Shown piece by piece: positions 38,616 through 62,929 of a DNA stretch of 64,000 bases (within the stretch, counting starts at the first letter, position 1; the number at the start of each line of letters is the position of its first letter). The DNA is from a virus, in IMG/VR virus record IMGVR_UViG_3300005607_000001, positions 1-64,000 of that record; one strand, written 5' to 3'. Position numbers and translations under genes: made by a program. Under the pieces are notes generated by a model. That model searched no databases. It was given only the letters and a program-made list of their open reading frames with translations, and was not told the origin of the DNA.

Positions 38616-38800
38616 GGTTAGTCACTGGCCCGCGGAGGGCCTTGAGTGACGGTGCGCCTCGGTGCCGGGTTAGTCACCGTAAGTGCTTGAAATCGCTCAG
38701 TTATTCCACTCCCCTTGGGGATACCACGGGCGGCCAAAACGCGGTGTATTTCAAGCACTTAGACCCCGGTTAGTCACTCCGTGATCGGCGGTTAGTCACT
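38616..38800. repeat. candidate attP: four direct repeats around an inverted repeat
   Basis: GGTTAGTCAC occurs at 38616-38625, 38668-38677, 38768-38777 and 38790-38799, all in the same direction. Between copies two and three lies a perfect 14-bp inverted repeat (38680-38693 and 38748-38761). Two direct copies on each side of a central inverted repeat, directly at the integrase 3' end, is the layout of arm-type sites flanking a core in phage attP. Inference from pattern. Confidence 0.65.
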
Positions 38801-39863
38801 TCCGCGTTCTCGGCCCGTTTCCCTTCCCCTTTAACCTTTCGACCCTGATTTGTTTCTCGATTGCACTTTCCGCCAATTGTATCTGATCCGCGGCGTCTAT
38901 GTAGGGTTGCAATTCCATTAGTGATCGATGGCCACTGATCGCTTGAAGTTCTTTTGACGTGCAACCTAATTCCGCCAAGCGGCGCAATTGGGCCTTTCGT
39001 AGCCCGTGCGCCGAACATTTCACCAACCCCGCGTCGTTGCACCATTTTCGAAACAGGTTTCCGAAACCGGCCGCCGAGAACGGTTTGCCGTAATCGGTGA
39101 CTAAAAACGTCAAATGAAGTGATTTGTGCGCGTTTAAGATCGCGCGCAATTCCGGGTGAATGGGGATCATTAGCACCCGGTCGGTTTTGTCCATTTTCGT
39201 TTTCTGTTGGCGAATTACGATCTTGTCGCCTTGAATGTGTTGTGGGCCGAGTTTGATTACATCGCTGCGCCGTTGGGCGGTATAGAGCATTAAACCCATC
39301 GCCAAGCGGGCCTTGGTGCCGATTGGATATTTGGCCTCGAAGCGCGCGATTTCGCTTTCCGTCCAGGTATGAATGTGCCCGGCAGTGACCTTCGGGGGTT
39401 TAATTCCCTGCGTCGGGTCGGATTTTATCACATTTGTATTCACCGCGAAGGTCATCAACCCGCGGAGGGTTTTGAGATAATTCTTCGCCGCGAAGGGTTT
39501 TTGACTCGCGATGATTTCTGTTACGTGTCGGGGTTCCATGAGGAATAATCTCTTGGAACCGTGTTTCGCCACGAATCTTTTCAACACCGCCCGACGCATT
39601 TTCTGCGTCGAAGGTGAGAGGTGTTTGAATGATTCGGATGCGAGGTAATCACTCACCACCCGCTCGACGGTGCCGGGTGAGGGTGGTTGATGATCACTGT
39701 GCGTTGTAGCTTGCGCAATAATGCGCGTGTAGTTCTCTAAAAACTCTTGTGTCCCGGGTTCGCCTTTGATCTCCACCCGGGGATAATTTTTGCGGCGGAA
39801 ATATCTGCGAATCTTTCCGTGCCGGTCGCGGTATTCGTTGATGTACGGCAGTTTGGTGATCAT
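38796..39863 (-). CDS. int: tyrosine recombinase (integrase)
   Basis: 355 aa. N-terminal SAM-like domain (residues 60-150) and catalytic domain with Arg199 in QRRSD, Lys221 or a near neighbour, His286 and Arg289 in SAHGLRK, His312 in GHRS and Tyr321 in QPYIDAADQ. All key residues are present, so it should be active and the phage can lysogenise. It is preceded by an excisionase-like gene and its 3' end overlaps the last attP-like repeat. Confidence 0.95.
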   Translation of the reverse strand: MITKLPYINEYRDRHGKIRRYFRRKNYPRVEIKGEPGTQEFLENYTRIIAQATTHSDHQPPSPGTVERVVSDYLASESFKHLSPSTQKMRRAVLKRFVAKHGSKRLFLMEPRHVTEIIASQKPFAAKNYLKTLRGLMTFAVNTNVIKSDPTQGIKPPKVTAGHIHTWTESEIARFEAKYPIGTKARLAMGLMLYTAQRRSDVIKLGPQHIQGDKIVIRQQKTKMDKTDRVLMIPIHPELRAILNAHKSLHLTFLVTDYGKPFSAAGFGNLFRKWCNDAGLVKCSAHGLRKAQLRRLAELGCTSKELQAISGHRSLMELQPYIDAADQIQLAESAIEKQIRVERLKGKGNGPRTRK

Positions 39864-45201: not shown

Positions 45202-45783
45202 TCAAAGATCGCTGATATCCGCGATCTTTGAAGCTTCGCCGATCATCTCTGAGCGGACCTCGGACAAGGTCCGCTCAAATAGGTCGTAATTCGCCGACAA
45301 AACGCCCTGAGGAGCGTTCTTCGTCGGCCGATCTGAAAGGAAATGGTCGACGAATTGATCGACCATCACCTTTGAACCGCGACCCGAGGGCAGCTTTTGG
45401 CCCCGCTGAGCCAAAAGCAGCGAGAGAACCCGCTTCGCGGCCTCGCGCCGCAAAGCGGTTTCGTCGATGGTGCGCGATCCGCGTTCGTTCAGGAACGCGA
45501 CAAGGCGGCCTTCGAGGGCCGCCTCACGCAACGCAGCGCTTATCTCGGCTTTCCAGCCGAGATAGCTTTTCAAATTCGCGGCGCTAGCACGTTTCCACGT
45601 GCTGACGTCCGCGAGCGAATAGTCGCTCGCGTTGCCCCCGCTTTCCGCTGCCATGGCCTTTTTCGCCATGGCGTCGGCGCGTTTGAAGGCGCGCGCGGCA
45701 ATCGCTTCCGCGCCTTCAACCAAGAGCTTCTCGCTCTCAGGCAATTCCGAGAGCGAAAGCCCGTCATACCAAACCTCGCTCAT
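45202..45783 (-). CDS. hypothetical protein with hairpin-dense coding sequence, 193 aa
   Basis: Not recognised. It is the first gene leftward of the divergent hub. ATG 45783 is chosen (AAGGAG at 12 bp); an ATG nine bases upstream is too close to the SD. The protein is helical and Ala/Glu/Arg-rich (LLVEGAEAIAARAFKRADAM). Its coding sequence carries at least 13 inverted repeats with arms of 7-12 bp and short loops, one every 40-50 bp; two have GGAA loops in the mRNA. Base use is richer in GC than the flanks. A promoter lies at 45894-45922. A regulator or early protein is possible. Confidence 0.7.
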   Translation of the reverse strand: MSEVWYDGLSLSELPESEKLLVEGAEAIAARAFKRADAMAKKAMAAESGGNASDYSLADVSTWKRASAANLKSYLGWKAEISAALREAALEGRLVAFLNERGSRTIDETALRREAAKRVLSLLLAQRGQKLPSGRGSKVMVDQFVDHFLSDRPTKNAPQGVLSANYDLFERTLSEVRSEMIGEASKIADISDL

Positions 45784-45849
45784 AACTATCATTAACTCCT
45801 TCCTACAACACACAACAGCTTGTTCTACGTTGCGCAAGGAAACAATGCA

Positions 45850-46230
45850 AGGAAAATGTGTGTGGTGAGGTATTGAAAGTGTGGTTAAGAGGGATTGTAA
45901 CAGTTTGTAACAAAGGGTACAATAATGTCATAAACATTATGATTAACGTTGTCTGATATGCGAAATGACGCGTTCCCATGCCGGCCGGCAGGTAACCTGT
46001 CGTTAACCATACGGGATAAAGCGGCACACATTTGGATATACATATATATATAATATATAAAAAATTAACCATACTCTATGTAAGGATATACCTCCCGCCC
46101 TCCCGCCCGCCGAACACGTGCCATCTCGCATATCAGACAACGTTGCTCATAACGTTTAGCTGCACGTGCATCCCTTTGTTACAATCTGTTACACACTCGC
46201 TCCCGCTCGCTCCCGCCCCTCACCACCTTC
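45850..46230. repeat. imperfect palindrome with AT-rich centre (divergent hub)
   Basis: Two arms mirror each other around position 46044.5: a perfect 19-bp pair (45945-45963 and 46126-46144), a 21-bp pair with one mismatch (45897-45917 and 46172-46192) and a 9-bp pair (45862-45870 and 46218-46226). All share the same centre within one base, in a run of TATATA. The two arms align without gaps over more than 80 bp. Genes to the left run leftward, genes to the right run rightward. A replication origin or a divergent operator is likely; which one is not decided. Confidence 0.8.
45894..45922 (-). promoter_or_regulatory. leftward promoter TTGTAC-17-TACAAT
   Basis: On the minus strand -35 TTGTAC (45922-45917) and -10 TACAAT (45899-45894) are 17 bp apart. 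The spacer is exactly the 21-bp repeat arm, so a protein bound there would control it. The mirror-image position on the right arm gives only TGCATC and TACACA, a weaker promoter. Confidence 0.65.
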
Positions 46231-46354
46231 CCAAAAATCGCCTAGGAACGCACTACACGCCACCTCGAACACTTTTCCGCCACCAACTTGGCGACGCCTA
46301 CCCTAGGCGTCGCCACCGTTAAAAGGCCGCGGATCAAAAACTAGCGGCCTTTTT
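46196..46354 (+). ncRNA. candidate small leader RNA with attenuator-type hairpins
   Basis: Between the right arm of the palindrome and a terminator there is no credible protein gene. A 12-bp perfect hairpin (46289-46300 and 46304-46315, loop CCC) is followed at once by the terminator at 46321-46354. CGCCTAGG (46239-46246) can pair instead with CCTAGGCG (46302-46309) and would break that hairpin. Either a small RNA or an attenuated leader; inference. Confidence 0.4.
46321..46354. terminator. bidirectional terminator AAAAGGCCGC/GCGGCCTTTT
   Basis: Stem 46321-46330 and 46344-46353 with a 13-base loop, T-run on the right and A-run on the left. It isolates the hub from the following small gene. 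Same GGCCGC core as the next two terminators. Confidence 0.82.
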
Positions 46355-46402
46355 AATGCCTACATATCTTGCATTTATCTCAAACTCGAAACATGCCACG
46401 CC

Positions 46403-46441
46403 TTGACATTCAACGCCACTTTGTGCTATGGCGTTGAATGT
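46403..46441 (+). promoter_or_regulatory. promoter TTGACA-18-TATGGC within a 13-bp palindrome
   Basis: TTGACA (46403-46408) is the consensus -35; TATGGC (46427-46432) with a TG extension is the -10. A perfect inverted repeat, 46406-46418 and 46429-46441, covers both elements and is a good operator candidate. It serves the gene at 46465. Confidence 0.65.
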
Positions 46442-46464
46442 TGTGTGTTGAGAAGGAATGAATG

Positions 46465-46857
46465 ATGTTTTACAACCTAACGCCTCATGAAATCTCAGCC
46501 GATGAGGCCGAGCTTGGCGTGATCGACGTAACGGAGCGCAGGAAGCTCATTGAGCTTCTCACGTTCCGCGAAAGGCCAACTGAGATTGAGGTTTGGGATA
46601 GGGCGCGCGAAATCGCGCGTCTATTATTGCGCGAAATCGACCGCGCTGAGCAGCGCGGAGATTGCTATCGCGATGACGATCACAGTGTCGTCATCTTCGG
46701 GCCCGCCTATTTGATGGGCCCGCTCGAAAAGGTTATATCCGGCATTAATGTACGGGTTTATCATCCGTACTATTCCCTTGATAGTCATGGGAATGCATCC
46801 TTTGAGGGATACATCCCAGTTACAGCGCACCGAATAGGTGCACCGTTGTTTGGATAA
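46465..46857 (+). CDS. hypothetical protein in a terminator-bounded unit, 130 aa
   Basis: Not firmly recognised; it opens FYNLTPHEI, a start seen in small phage proteins of unknown role (NLTPH type), and has an acidic helical region (WDRAREIARLLLREIDRAEQ) and a beta end (GINVRVYHPYYS). AAGGA is 7 bp before ATG 46465. The gene stands alone between two terminators with its own promoter. Its coding sequence contains about eight hairpins, for example 46672-46679 with 46688-46695, and 46698-46704 with 46716-46722. Confidence 0.7.
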   Translation: MFYNLTPHEISADEAELGVIDVTERRKLIELLTFRERPTEIEVWDRAREIARLLLREIDRAEQRGDCYRDDDHSVVIFGPAYLMGPLEKVISGINVRVYHPYYSLDSHGNASFEGYIPVTAHRIGAPLFG

Positions 46858-47791: not shown

Positions 47792-48172
47792 ATGCCAATA
47801 ACTCAAACTCGCATTCAAGGCCTTTTATCAGTCATTGAAAACATTCAAACCCGGATTGGACACTTACAACACGTAATACAAGCCCGCGCACAAGACGCGC
47901 GAATGCAAGCGGCAAATAACGCGAACAACGCAAGTGATGCAAGTGATGGAAATAATGCAAACAATACACCTTCACAAAACGTGATCTTAGATCTCTATAA
48001 CGCAATCAATCAACTCGAAGACCTTATTGTTAACTGGGAATTCCTTTCACGCGAGGATTTCGAAATCTTCACGCGCGAAAAAGTGCACTTTGAATTTGCA
48101 CACAAACGCAACGATTACTCCCGGCGATATATGCAAAAGCGCCGAATGACGCTAAAAGGCAGTGATCAATGA
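47792..48172 (+). CDS. hypothetical protein with Asn/Ala-rich linker, 126 aa
   Basis: ATG 47792 follows a C/A-rich leader without an SD. A helical N-terminus (LLSVIENIQTRIGHLQHVI), a low-complexity middle (MQAANNANNASDASDGNNAN) and a second helix (LYNAINQLEDLIVNWEFL) with a basic end. Ends in an ATGA overlap with the next gene. Confidence 0.65.
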   Translation: MPITQTRIQGLLSVIENIQTRIGHLQHVIQARAQDARMQAANNANNASDASDGNNANNTPSQNVILDLYNAINQLEDLIVNWEFLSREDFEIFTREKVHFEFAHKRNDYSRRYMQKRRMTLKGSDQ

Positions 48173-58903: not shown

Positions 58904-59215
58904 ATGCCGGACTACAACACCCCGCGGTTCTTTTGCGTATGGATTGACCTCGGGTTGGAGAGATTAAAGAAACTACAACGCTTGAATAATCACGCGTTAC
59001 AAATCTCTCCAACCATGATTCTAATCCCCAATGGAACCCCAGAGGATCCACAGTACATTCACTTGCGCCCGTATAAATCCGGGACGTTAATCAGCGAACG
59101 CACCTCGACGGGCACATCACAAGGGCAATTATTCAACATTCCATGGTCCAAGGCTACGAATTACATCATCAACCGCGCGGCGAAATTGAAATGTCACTTT
59201 CAAGTGCAAAAATAA
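58904..59215 (+). CDS. hypothetical protein, 103 aa
   Basis: Begins where the previous gene ends. Helix ERLKKLQRLNNHALQI, beta pieces (TMILIPNGTPEDPQYIHL), basic C-terminus. Overlaps the UDG-exonuclease start by 25 bp. Not recognised. Confidence 0.6.
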   Translation: MPDYNTPRFFCVWIDLGLERLKKLQRLNNHALQISPTMILIPNGTPEDPQYIHLRPYKSGTLISERTSTGTSQGQLFNIPWSKATNYIINRAAKLKCHFQVQK

Positions 59216-60342
59216 TCCTCATCGGCGAGGCTTGGGGCGTTGATGAACAACGTCACAAACACGCATTCGTTGGCGCGGCGGGCAGGGAACTAGCGGCGCA
59301 AATTGCGCATTCCAACCTCGCCCCGGCAATTACCACTAAATACCCTTCCTGCGAGGAACTAATCTCCTATTGGCAAAATTTATCCACTAATCACGGAATA
59401 CATTTATTAAACGTCTTCAACCTTCATCCAGAGAATAATAAAATCGATTTATTCTTTTCCCGTGATGGCAACCGTTCCCTCGCACCGTATCGCGTGGGGA
59501 AATACCTCATTCCCGAATACATGCCGCATGTTTTGCGCCTATGGGAAAACATCCGATCATTGAACCCGAACCTAATCATCACCCTAGGCGGAGTGGCATC
59601 TTGGGCCGTTTTAGGCAAAACAATCAAAATCTCCGAAATCCGCGGCACAATAAATCCCGCGCGCACGGAACTACACAACCTAAAAACCCTGCCCACCTAT
59701 CACCCGTCGTACATCATGCAATACGGTTATTCCGACCGACCGATTGTCATCGCGGATTTAATCAAGGCCAAATCCGAATCCCAATTCCCCGAAATCCGGC
59801 GCACGGAACGATTTATCACCATTCCCAATCCGGATTCCGTACAAGAAATCATCTCCTGGATCCAACGTCCCGCGGATATGTACGCCGTGGATATTGAAAC
59901 CGGGTATGCCCTTTATACCCACATCGAATTAACCTCCATGCTCCCGCGGCATAGATTTTATCTCTCATCGCAGATTTCAATGATCGGTTTCGCGCGGTCG
60001 AAAAGCGATGCCCTGGTAATACCGTTTATGGCGCGCAATGCCGATAACACCTCACTCGATTTTTGGTCAACGCCTGAGCTGGAAACCCAAGCTTGGCGCT
60101 TAACCCGCGAACTCTTACAGTCACCAATTCCGAAAATCTTCCAAAACGGCATGTTCGACATACAACGTTTGTTAGAAAAAGGTCTCGTACCGCGCAATTG
60201 CCTCCATGATACCATGTTACGTCAACATGCGCTATATCCCGAATTACAAAAATCCCTCGGATTCCTGGTCTCCATTCATTGCAACGAATTCCCATGGAAG
60301 GGGATGTATTCCAACCGCGATCATTTGAAACGCGACGAATAA
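59191..60342 (+). CDS. uracil-DNA glycosylase fused to a 3'-5' exonuclease domain
   Basis: 383 aa from ATG 59191. Residues 1-about 200: IILIGEAWGVDE, HAFVGAAGRELAA and LPTYHPSYIMQYG, motifs of family 4/5-type UDG. Residues about 225 onward: DIET (234-237, exo I), KIFQNGMFDIQRLLE (exo II) and CLHDTMLRQHALYPELQKS (exo III) of a DnaQ/Pol A-type proofreading exonuclease. The polymerase itself is a separate gene. It may remove uracil and proofread near the fork. Confidence 0.85.
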   Translation: MSLSSAKIILIGEAWGVDEQRHKHAFVGAAGRELAAQIAHSNLAPAITTKYPSCEELISYWQNLSTNHGIHLLNVFNLHPENNKIDLFFSRDGNRSLAPYRVGKYLIPEYMPHVLRLWENIRSLNPNLIITLGGVASWAVLGKTIKISEIRGTINPARTELHNLKTLPTYHPSYIMQYGYSDRPIVIADLIKAKSESQFPEIRRTERFITIPNPDSVQEIISWIQRPADMYAVDIETGYALYTHIELTSMLPRHRFYLSSQISMIGFARSKSDALVIPFMARNADNTSLDFWSTPELETQAWRLTRELLQSPIPKIFQNGMFDIQRLLEKGLVPRNCLHDTMLRQHALYPELQKSLGFLVSIHCNEFPWKGMYSNRDHLKRDE

Positions 60343-60779: not shown

Positions 60780-62237
60780 ATGCCTGTCTTTGCAACGCAT
60801 ACCTTAGACATTAACACCCTTCCGCAGGAATTTTACATCCCCGTTTACAACGGGCTTGATAATTGCCTAACCTATGAAGTCAATGAAATAATGTCCCCCC
60901 TGGCGGAAGGGAATTTTATCTATGACTTCGAACGCGCATTGCAAGCCCCGGTCATGGAAATGCAACTTCGAGGGTTTCGCATCGATCCCATCGCGCGCGA
61001 AGAGGCACTAAAACTCACAAAACAAAAACTAACTGCGACATTGGGCGTTTTAACGCGCTTGTGCAATTATCCCATAAACCCCAATTCAGGCGATCAATTA
61101 AGGAATTTGTTTTATAACCAATTCGGCCTCAAACCCGTAAAGCGTTATTACAAGGGCGAGGTCGCATCTCCGATGGACCGAAAAGTCCTCGAATCCTTCA
61201 GGCATCATCTGTACGCCGAACCAATCACCAACGCCGTTCTGCTCGCCCGGGATTTGGTGAAAATCATTCAGGTTCTCGAAACCGACATCGATCTTGATTG
61301 GCGCTGGAGGTGCAGTTACAACATCGCCGGAACGACAACCGGGAGGTTTTCGAGTTCCAAATCCGGCATCGGCACCGGGTCGAATTTTCAAAACATCACC
61401 GAAGACCTTCGCCGGATTTTCATCGCCGATCCGGGTTACAAACTCTGCGGCATTGACGGCGAACAGGCCGAGGCGCGATTTGTCGGCTGGTTTTGTGGTA
61501 TAACCTTCAACGATTGGCGTTATTTGAACGCCGCCGAAAGCGGTGATTTACATACCTACGTCACCCGATTGGTCTACCCAGATTGGCCGTGGACGGGCGA
61601 TTTATCCAAAGACCGCAAACTTGCCGAGCGGACATTTCACAGGCATTTCACATTCCGCGATGCGAGCAAACGCCTTGCACATGGCACGAATTACCTCGGC
61701 CAGCCGGATAACATGGCCCGGCAAACTCAAATCCCCTTGCCACTCGTCAGAGATTTTTACGATCGCTATATGACCGCCTTTGAGTGCATCGACAAGATGC
61801 ACAAATTTATCATCAGTCAATTGCAAACCAAACGACGTTTGACGTCAATGATGGGCCGGCCACGGGATTTCTTCGACCGGCCAAATGATCCCGAAACCTG
61901 GCGTGCGGCCGTGGCATTTATGTTTCAATCCTCAACGAGCGATTACATCAACCTCGGTCTGTGGCGCATCTGGCGCTATATGGGCCTCAGAGTGCAAATT
62001 CTCAGTCAACTTCACGACGCGGTTTATTTTCAATTCCGCACTGACGACGACGAACGCGACGTTGTGCGCGAGGCGTTGGATTTAATGCAAATCAAACTTC
62101 GGCACAATGATCGGGAGTTTTACATCCCCTGCGAGGCCCAAACGGGGTTTAATTGGGGGCACAAATGGAAACTTGATTCCAAAGGGAATAAATACGAGGC
62201 GAACCCCAAGGGGTTGGATAAAGTGAAATGGGATTGA
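60780..62237 (+). CDS. DNA polymerase family A, polymerase domain only
   Basis: 485 aa. Motif A IDGEQAEARFVGW with Asp226, motif B ASKRLAHGTNYLGQP with Lys297, motif C LSQLHDAVYFQF with His412-Asp413. GTTTGRFSSS and QNITEDLRRIF are the usual fingers/palm residues. Exonuclease and 5' nuclease domains are absent; the exonuclease is in the preceding UDG fusion. It is the replicative polymerase candidate. Confidence 0.93.
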   Translation: MPVFATHTLDINTLPQEFYIPVYNGLDNCLTYEVNEIMSPLAEGNFIYDFERALQAPVMEMQLRGFRIDPIAREEALKLTKQKLTATLGVLTRLCNYPINPNSGDQLRNLFYNQFGLKPVKRYYKGEVASPMDRKVLESFRHHLYAEPITNAVLLARDLVKIIQVLETDIDLDWRWRCSYNIAGTTTGRFSSSKSGIGTGSNFQNITEDLRRIFIADPGYKLCGIDGEQAEARFVGWFCGITFNDWRYLNAAESGDLHTYVTRLVYPDWPWTGDLSKDRKLAERTFHRHFTFRDASKRLAHGTNYLGQPDNMARQTQIPLPLVRDFYDRYMTAFECIDKMHKFIISQLQTKRRLTSMMGRPRDFFDRPNDPETWRAAVAFMFQSSTSDYINLGLWRIWRYMGLRVQILSQLHDAVYFQFRTDDDERDVVREALDLMQIKLRHNDREFYIPCEAQTGFNWGHKWKLDSKGNKYEANPKGLDKVKWD

Positions 62238-62241
62238 ATTC

Positions 62242-62454
62242 ATGAGCGTCACGTATCACGCCGATGCGGTTGTCAAAGTCTCTATCACTCACGATGAAGT
62301 GACGACGACCTATCACTTAACCACAAGACGCGTATCTGTATATTGCGAATACGACCACGGTTCAACACCTGATGCTAAAACGTTGAAAGAACTCACCTTC
62401 ACGTTCCATTACCCGGAAATGAGAGGATTAAATGTTGACGCGCCGGTGGGATAG
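62242..62454 (+). CDS. hypothetical protein, 70 aa
   Basis: Beta-rich (TTTYHLTTRRVSVYCEYDHG), ends inside the deaminase start by 23 bp. Not recognised. Confidence 0.6.
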   Translation: MSVTYHADAVVKVSITHDEVTTTYHLTTRRVSVYCEYDHGSTPDAKTLKELTFTFHYPEMRGLNVDAPVG

Positions 62455-62929
62455 GCATTTTTTACGCCTCGCACTCGAACATTCCCGGATGTCAAAAGAC
62501 CCGCGCACAAAGGTCGGGGCGTTGATCGTCAGTCCGGATCGTGGAATTATCTCCGCGGGGTTTAACGGTTTTCCACAACGCATAACCGATTCCGCCGAAC
62601 GGTTGAATGACCGCAACATAAAACTCGACCTAATCATCCACGCGGAGATGAATGCCATACTTTTCGCCGCGCGACGTGGCATCGCGACTAAAGGCAACGC
62701 GATGTATATCATCGGCCATTCGGCCTTGACGGGTGATATTCTAGGCCTTCCGCCTTGTGTACGTTGCGCGGTGCAAATGATTCAAGCGGGGATTACACAG
62801 GTCATAACCTGTCCCCTGAATACCTCACTTCAACATTGGGAAGACAGTTGCCTCACCACACAACGCATTATGCACGAGGCGGGGGTTGAATACATTGAAA
62901 TCCCTGCCGATGCCCTCACGGAGAAATGA
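62432..62929 (+). CDS. dCMP deaminase
   Basis: 165 aa zinc enzyme. HAE motif with His70 and Glu72, PPCVRC with Cys109 and Cys112, TKVGALIVSPD and ISAGFNGFP before it. It converts dCMP to dUMP, feeding ThyX. SD GAGAGGA precedes the ATG. Confidence 0.93.
   Translation: MLTRRWDRHFLRLALEHSRMSKDPRTKVGALIVSPDRGIISAGFNGFPQRITDSAERLNDRNIKLDLIIHAEMNAILFAARRGIATKGNAMYIIGHSALTGDILGLPPCVRCAVQMIQAGITQVITCPLNTSLQHWEDSCLTTQRIMHEAGVEYIEIPADALTEK

What the first reader, a model, noticed from the sequence alone, without database searches (positions are those of the whole stretch)
45850..46230. Giant imperfect palindrome with an AT-rich centre at the point of transcription divergence
Three paired segments (19/19, 20/21 and 9/9 identical bases) share one centre near 46044.5, in a TATATA run. 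The arms align without gaps but have diverged between the matched blocks, as if one arm was an ancient inverted copy that kept only selected sites. The left arm contains a good promoter whose spacer is one of the conserved blocks. The arrangement fits either a replication origin with a melting core or a divergent operator that switches between the leftward and rightward halves.
Basis: partly seen in the sequence, partly recalled or inferred. Interest (0 to 1): 0.82.

Follow-up and report, generated by a model that had tools for sequence, protein, structure and literature searches.

The report
Inverted-arm control hub in phages
A 64-kb phage genome has a very AT-rich DNA core flanked by two mirror-image sequence arms exactly where its genes part into left- and right-going sets, and its relatives keep the same layout with entirely different arm sequences, which points to a replication-origin/promoter switch whose matched recognition sites change together.

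Summary
Two 78-bp arms (45896-45973 and 46116-46193, 59/78 complementary, no gaps) face each other across 142 bp at the only major divergence of transcription. The score of 40 compares with 19 at most in 20 shuffles and 18 at the next best place. The core is the least stable 60- and 100-bp stretch of the circular genome. I then tested relatives. Eleven loci (nine unrelated arm families) have arms of 33-89 bp around an AT-rich core at the same gene boundary. A test fixed beforehand on 80 loci fetched by another gene picked five, and the four new ones are exactly those with syntenic terminase-side genes. Arms match within each genome (scores 20-42) but not between genomes (6-12), except in two related pairs. 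GC skew drops across the core in 10 of 10 genomes. Outward sigma-70 promoters lie at matched columns of both arms in L168/L169, weaker elsewhere, absent in several lineages. Best reading: paired binding arrays for one cognate factor around a melting core, probably the replication origin merged with the divergent promoters; function is inferred. A single ancient inverted copy is not supported. New variant of a known kind.

The parts
45896..45917 (+). left arm, outer block TGTAACAGTTTGTAACAAAGGG (two TGTAACA 10 bp apart)
   Evidence: I2; lag-10 self-match
45931..45973 (+). left arm, inner block with 12-bp spaced repeat (AACATTATGATT/AACGTTGTCTGA) and 19-bp invariant block
   Evidence: I1
46030..46065 (.). 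AT-rich core (candidate unwinding element / shared upstream element)
   Evidence: least stable 60-bp window of the genome centred 46059, 100-bp window centred 46042
46116..46158 (-). right arm, inner block (mirror of 45931-45973)
46172..46193 (-). right arm, outer block (mirror of 45896-45917)
45936..45964 (-). candidate outward (leftward) sigma-70 promoter TTCGCA-17-CATAAT in the left inner block
   Evidence: 9/12; the same columns of the right arm read CTCGCA-17-CATAAC (sequence)
46156..46185 (+). candidate outward (rightward) promoter TTAGCT-18-TACAAT in the right arm
   Evidence: weak (joint outward test for this genome p=0.14)
46289..46358 (+). two strong hairpins, the second followed by T5: terminator-like leader end between right arm and first rightward gene
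   Evidence: fold (z -3.5)
46403..46441 (+). TTGACA-18-TATGGC overlapped by a 13-bp dyad (46406-46418/46429-46441): possible own promoter/operator of the first rightward gene
   Evidence: I3; sequence
45202..45837 (-). first leftward gene (likely start 45792, after AGGAAGGAG)
46462..46857 (+). first rightward gene, no family found

Best explanation
A cis-acting control hub: a DNA core that melts easily, flanked by two inverted copies of a long binding array for one cognate trans-acting factor (probably phage-encoded). Binding of the factor to both arms brings them together or loads proteins on the core; this most likely fires DNA replication from this site and sets the activity of the promoters that read leftward (structural) and rightward (replication genes). 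The specificity of factor and arms changes together between lineages, so geometry is conserved and sequence is not. Shown: geometry, position, core instability, skew change, within-genome matching of arms. Inferred: protein binding, origin function, promoter control, identity of the factor.
For: Inverted arms around the AT-rich core at the same gene boundary in 11 loci / 9 arm families; observed scores 20-42 against null maxima of 13-17 where the flank null was run. Validation fixed in advance: of 80 loci fetched by the CobS-like protein only 5 pass, four new ones with syntenic terminase-side genes plus the already known G004. Core is the least stable 60-bp stretch of the genome or contig in W, G001, G003, G010, G011, G012, G002, 2nd to 8th in G004, G013, G014. 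GC skew falls from the left 5 kb to the right 5 kb in 10/10; detrended cumulative skew peaks at 46024 in W and 23685 in G001, 20 and 27 bp from the arm centres; in W the sign of GC3 skew does not follow gene direction. Arm motifs found nowhere else in their genomes for W, G001, G004 and the long motif of G003. Arms unrelated between genomes; in the pair L247/L249 eight columns changed in both arms together and none the other way. Twelve-bp tandem periodicity in the arms of the first six families taken together (mean z 4.1 at lag 12).
Against: No initiator or arm-binding protein was identified. GC-skew evidence is confounded with divergent transcription, its sign (leading strand C-rich if this is a bidirectional origin) is unusual, and the drop is the most extreme of the genome only in W. 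The 12-bp repeats and outward promoters are absent or weak in the four validation lineages. L167 has only a marginal inverted repeat (p=0.05). In this window a terminator-like structure lies between the right arm and the first rightward gene, so the right arm is not simply that gene's promoter.
Confidence: 0.5

Rival explanations
1. Divergent promoter-operator only: each arm is an outward promoter overlaid by operator repeats for one regulator; the AT core is a shared UP element; replication starts elsewhere.
For: Outward sigma-70 hexamers at the same columns of both arms in L168/L169 (TTGCCA-18-TAAAAT and TTGTGA-18-TATAAT, p=0.003), also joint support in L028 (0.007) and G004 (0.010), and a strong single one in L034 (TTGACT-18-TAAAAT). 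By reading the sequences, the repeats overlap the -10 region in W, L023, L028, L168. Divergent genes need promoters here.
Against: No matched outward promoter in L174, L247, L249 and only a marginal one in L188. Arms are 33-89 bp, longer than usual operators. The distance from arm to gene start varies widely, while the arms stay roughly 50-190 bp from the core.
Confidence: 0.33
2. Paired single-strand initiation sites (as in the ssi pair of IncQ plasmids): each arm folds on its own strand and primes synthesis once the core is open.
For: Two inverted elements around an AT core; some arms can fold (L249 right z -2.6, L034 right z -2.6).
Against: Mean z of the 20 arms about -0.75, and left and right arms of the same genome often fold differently.
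Confidence: 0.04
3. Attachment site of the tyrosine integrase encoded at 38796-39863.
For: An integrase gene exists in this genome; attachment sites can have an AT-rich core between arm sites (own knowledge).
Against: None of nine relatives with the element has a Phage_integrase match; some of those records may be fragments. The gene is about 6 kb away.
Confidence: 0.02
4. Packaging start or genome end.
For: Terminase genes are about 1-6 kb away; skew breaks can mark genome ends.
Against: The window record is circular by 90-bp end overlap and most contigs read through the core; two contigs (L027, L166) do end in it, which low-complexity DNA alone can cause.
Confidence: 0.05
5. Relic of one ancient inverted duplication.
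For: Diverged arms with islands of identity.
Against: Orthologous arms are unrelated while paralogous arms match in each of nine families.
Confidence: 0.03

Closest known systems
Herpes simplex oriS/oriL
   Same: Inverted binding sites for one origin-binding protein on both sides of an AT-rich spacer, whose bound dimers are thought to destabilise the spacer (PMC12543377); that oriL lies between divergent genes is from own knowledge.
   Different: Unrelated virus; arms here are longer, the gap between them is 96-335 bp, sequences unrelated, no origin-binding helicase identified.
Lambda ori and iteron origins
   Same: Repeated initiator sites next to an AT-rich region that opens; transcription helps opening (PMC5043065).
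   Different: Here arrays lie on both sides in mirror image; direct 12-bp repeats only in some lineages; no O/Rep-like gene found.
PLE satellite origin of Vibrio cholerae
   Same: Origin in a repeat-bearing noncoding region, with the argument that an origin fits between divergently transcribed operons (PMC7145576).
   Different: RepA_N initiator there; the passages read describe no mirrored arms about a core.
Divergent phage operator-promoters (lambda OR/OL type, own knowledge)
   Same: Operator repeats over back-to-back promoters.
   Different: Much longer arms, absent promoters in some lineages, complete turnover of arm sequence.

Membership tests
Inverted-site/AT-core replication origin (herpes oriS type) | inverted protein-site arms flank an AT-rich core | tested here: met
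   geometry only; that proteins bind the arms is not shown
Inverted-site/AT-core replication origin (herpes oriS type) | cognate origin-binding protein encoded | tested here: inconclusive
   Pfam/PHROG scans of a subset of the genes gave no initiator
Inverted-site/AT-core replication origin (herpes oriS type) | replication starts here | not testable with these tools
   GC-skew change agrees but is confounded with transcription
Iteron origin (lambda/plasmid type) | tandem initiator repeats beside an AT-rich element | tested here: inconclusive
   12-bp lag strong in the first six families taken together, weak in the four validation loci
Divergent promoter-operator | outward promoters in both arms | tested here: inconclusive
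   met in L168/L169; one-sided or weak in W, L023, L028, L034, G004; not met in L174, L247, L249, marginal in L188
Divergent promoter-operator | one regulator binds both arms | not testable with these tools
   needs binding assay
Tyrosine integrase attachment site | integrase encoded wherever the site occurs | tested here: not met
   1 of 10 records
Protelomerase target (N15 type) | near-perfect palindrome across its centre, with a protelomerase gene | tested here: not met
   142-bp largely unmatched gap; the only tyrosine recombinase found is a 355-aa integrase absent from relatives

The most novel reading that the evidence does not exclude
A widespread class of phage origin/switch in which the geometry (AT core, two long inverted arms, divergent genes) is fixed but the recognition sequence of both arms is replaced as a matched pair in each lineage, giving many mutually orthogonal initiator-site pairs.
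Probability: 0.35. Interest if true: 0.75.

Novelty: new variant of a known kind. Interest (0 to 1): 0.6.

Why it matters
It gives a simple, alignment-free signature (least stable DNA plus flanking inverted arms at a divergence point) for finding candidate origins/control hubs in uncultivated phages, where sequence comparison fails because the arms share nothing between relatives. If the arms really are cognate sites of one factor, the nine families found here would be natural orthogonal protein-DNA pairs and a case of concerted change of two distant sites that can be tested directly.

Tried and rejected
Nucleotide search of named phages: no match. First-gene and single-sequence terminase queries found no relatives. 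GGCATAC motif: several copies near the core in L027, L028, L023 and elsewhere, but not near the core in W or L034; not pursued. DnaA boxes: none at the element in any of four genomes. Hairpin-forming arms: not consistent. Rfam on the region: only sub-threshold hits. Integrase attachment site and protelomerase site: rejected. Cultivated relatives Polewnik and Strzyga (first 30 kb of each record only): no mirrored arms at their least stable windows. The conserved 'MPIT...' early protein is a candidate binder by position only; no fold or family. No structure prediction was run: alignments were too shallow.

Full report
1. The observation. The inverted repeat is real and strong. Gapless about 46044.5, it scores 40 against at most 19 in 20 shuffles of the whole window and 18 at the next centre; 59 of 78 positions pair between 45896-45973 and 46116-46193, in two blocks, 21/22 and 43 nt at 86%. 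A search of the record itself finds the two arms only as mirror images of each other, and core motifs of the arms occur nowhere else in the genome. The record is a virus contig of 64187 bases with a 90-base end overlap, so circular, about 64.1 kb. Leftward genes are structural (terminase, portal, capsid, tail), rightward ones are for replication and nucleotides (exonuclease, DNA polymerase in two ORFs, primase/helicase-like DUF3987 protein, dNMP kinase, reductase).

2. Relatives. Portal and terminase searches gave contigs of the same phage group, with extensive shared gene content in three long ones, G001, G003 and G004. At the same divergence L023, L028 and L034 have inverted arms around an AT-rich core, but with other sequences. 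A formal test (best inverted repeat between the two 220-bp flanks of the least stable point of the divergence region, 400 dinucleotide shuffles of each flank) gives 20-40 in W, L023, L028, L034, L168, L169 and G004 against null maxima of 13-17; L167 is marginal. Around the 24 next least stable windows in each of four genomes no such flanks occur, the best being 16 apart from G004's own element, which ranks below first there.

3. Validation. I then fetched 80 loci through the CobS-like ATPase on the other side of the junction and applied the test, unchanged, to the least stable 60-bp window of each locus with a threshold of 17. Five pass: L174 (41), L176 (which is G004 again), L188 (35), L247 (25), L249 (42). 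The four new ones are exactly the ones that carry the syntenic terminase-side genes. So the layout reaches phages whose portal protein is no longer recognisable and was not seen in the other 75 loci, which share only the CobS-like gene.

4. What is conserved and what is not. Conserved: place, least stable core (rank 1 of the genome or contig at 60 bp in seven of ten, 2nd to 8th in the other three), arms of 33-89 bp with 69-88% complementarity and a gap of 96-335 bp. Not conserved: the arm sequence. Within a genome arms score 20-42 against each other; between genomes 6-12, except L168/L169 (49) and L247/L249 (23). In L247/L249, whose adjacent gene product is 89% identical, eight columns changed in both arms of one genome together and none in the orthologous pattern; in the closer pair L168/L169 ten differences between left and right arm are kept in both genomes. 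Constant copying of one arm onto the other would have erased those ten, so joint selection by one binding partner is the simpler reading, though copying at longer times is not excluded.

5. Clues to mechanism. (a) Tandem repetition at 12 bp stands out among lags 5-21 in the first six families taken together (mean z 4.1; next 1.4 at lag 6; weak in L034) and in the surviving arms of L027 and L166, but is weak in the four validation loci. (b) Outward sigma-70 hexamers at the same columns of both arms: L168/L169 p=0.003, L028 0.007, G004 0.010, W 0.14, L034 0.16, L023 0.25; inward, only L023 is low (0.013). They are absent in L174, L247 and L249 and marginal in L188. So promoters are a common but not general part. 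(c) GC skew: detrended cumulative skew peaks 20 and 27 bp from the arm centre in W and G001, but 2.5 kb away in G003, and the skew falls from the left to the right 5 kb in 10 of 10 contigs (for G004 only 534 bases of the left side are present). In W it does not simply follow gene direction, since the convergent junction at 6.8 kb shows no change. It remains confounded with divergence, and only in W is the drop the most extreme of the genome. (d) Arms do not fold consistently as single strands. (e) In this window two hairpins with a T run (46289-46358) would end a transcript from the right arm before the first rightward gene, which has a possible promoter of its own at 46403 (sequence).

6. Conclusion. 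Sequence supports a paired-site element around a melting core, one per genome, at the divergence. What works most like it is the herpes oriS plan (inverted boxes, AT spacer; PMC12543377) and the iteron plan of lambda and plasmids (PMC5043065); an origin between divergent operons has precedent in the PLE satellite (PMC7145576). It is not filed as a member of any of them, because no initiator was identified and initiation was not measured. I put about even odds on an origin merged with promoter control and one in three on promoter-operator alone.

Noticed in passing
window 38796-39863 (-): Tyrosine integrase gene between terminase and portal genes; no Phage_integrase match in nine relatives' records, so probably a late insertion into the structural operon.
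   Followed up: partly
window 59143-60342 and 60780-62237 (+): PolA-type DNA polymerase split into an exonuclease ORF and a polymerase ORF with another ORF between; both parts are also separate genes in G001, G003 and G004.
   Followed up: partly
window 46003 and 46065: Two exact TTAACCAT, which as I recall is the CtrA half-site of Alphaproteobacteria, flank the AT core; six copies in the genome, none in G001 or G003.
   Followed up: no
L027:1-100, L166:1-130: Contigs of two relatives begin inside the AT core, as if assembly broke there.
   Followed up: no
L027, L028, L023, L166 around the core: Repeated GGCATAC motif on either strand near the core in several relatives.
   Followed up: partly
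window 47792-48172; L023:3195-3773; L034:561-1091; L028:1535-1912; L161:225-911: Small early proteins beginning MPIT/MPIR, most with a basic ARxYM-type motif, encoded within about 2 kb of the core on the early side; no known family.
   Followed up: partly
window 46289-46364: Sub-threshold full-length Rfam match to the alphaproteobacterial sRNA mmgR/suhB (19.4 bits, gathering 41), probably just two hairpins with a terminator.
   Followed up: no
G004 1738-2301 against window 62432-62929: dCMP-deaminase-like gene has changed sides of the genome between relatives (50% identity).
   Followed up: no
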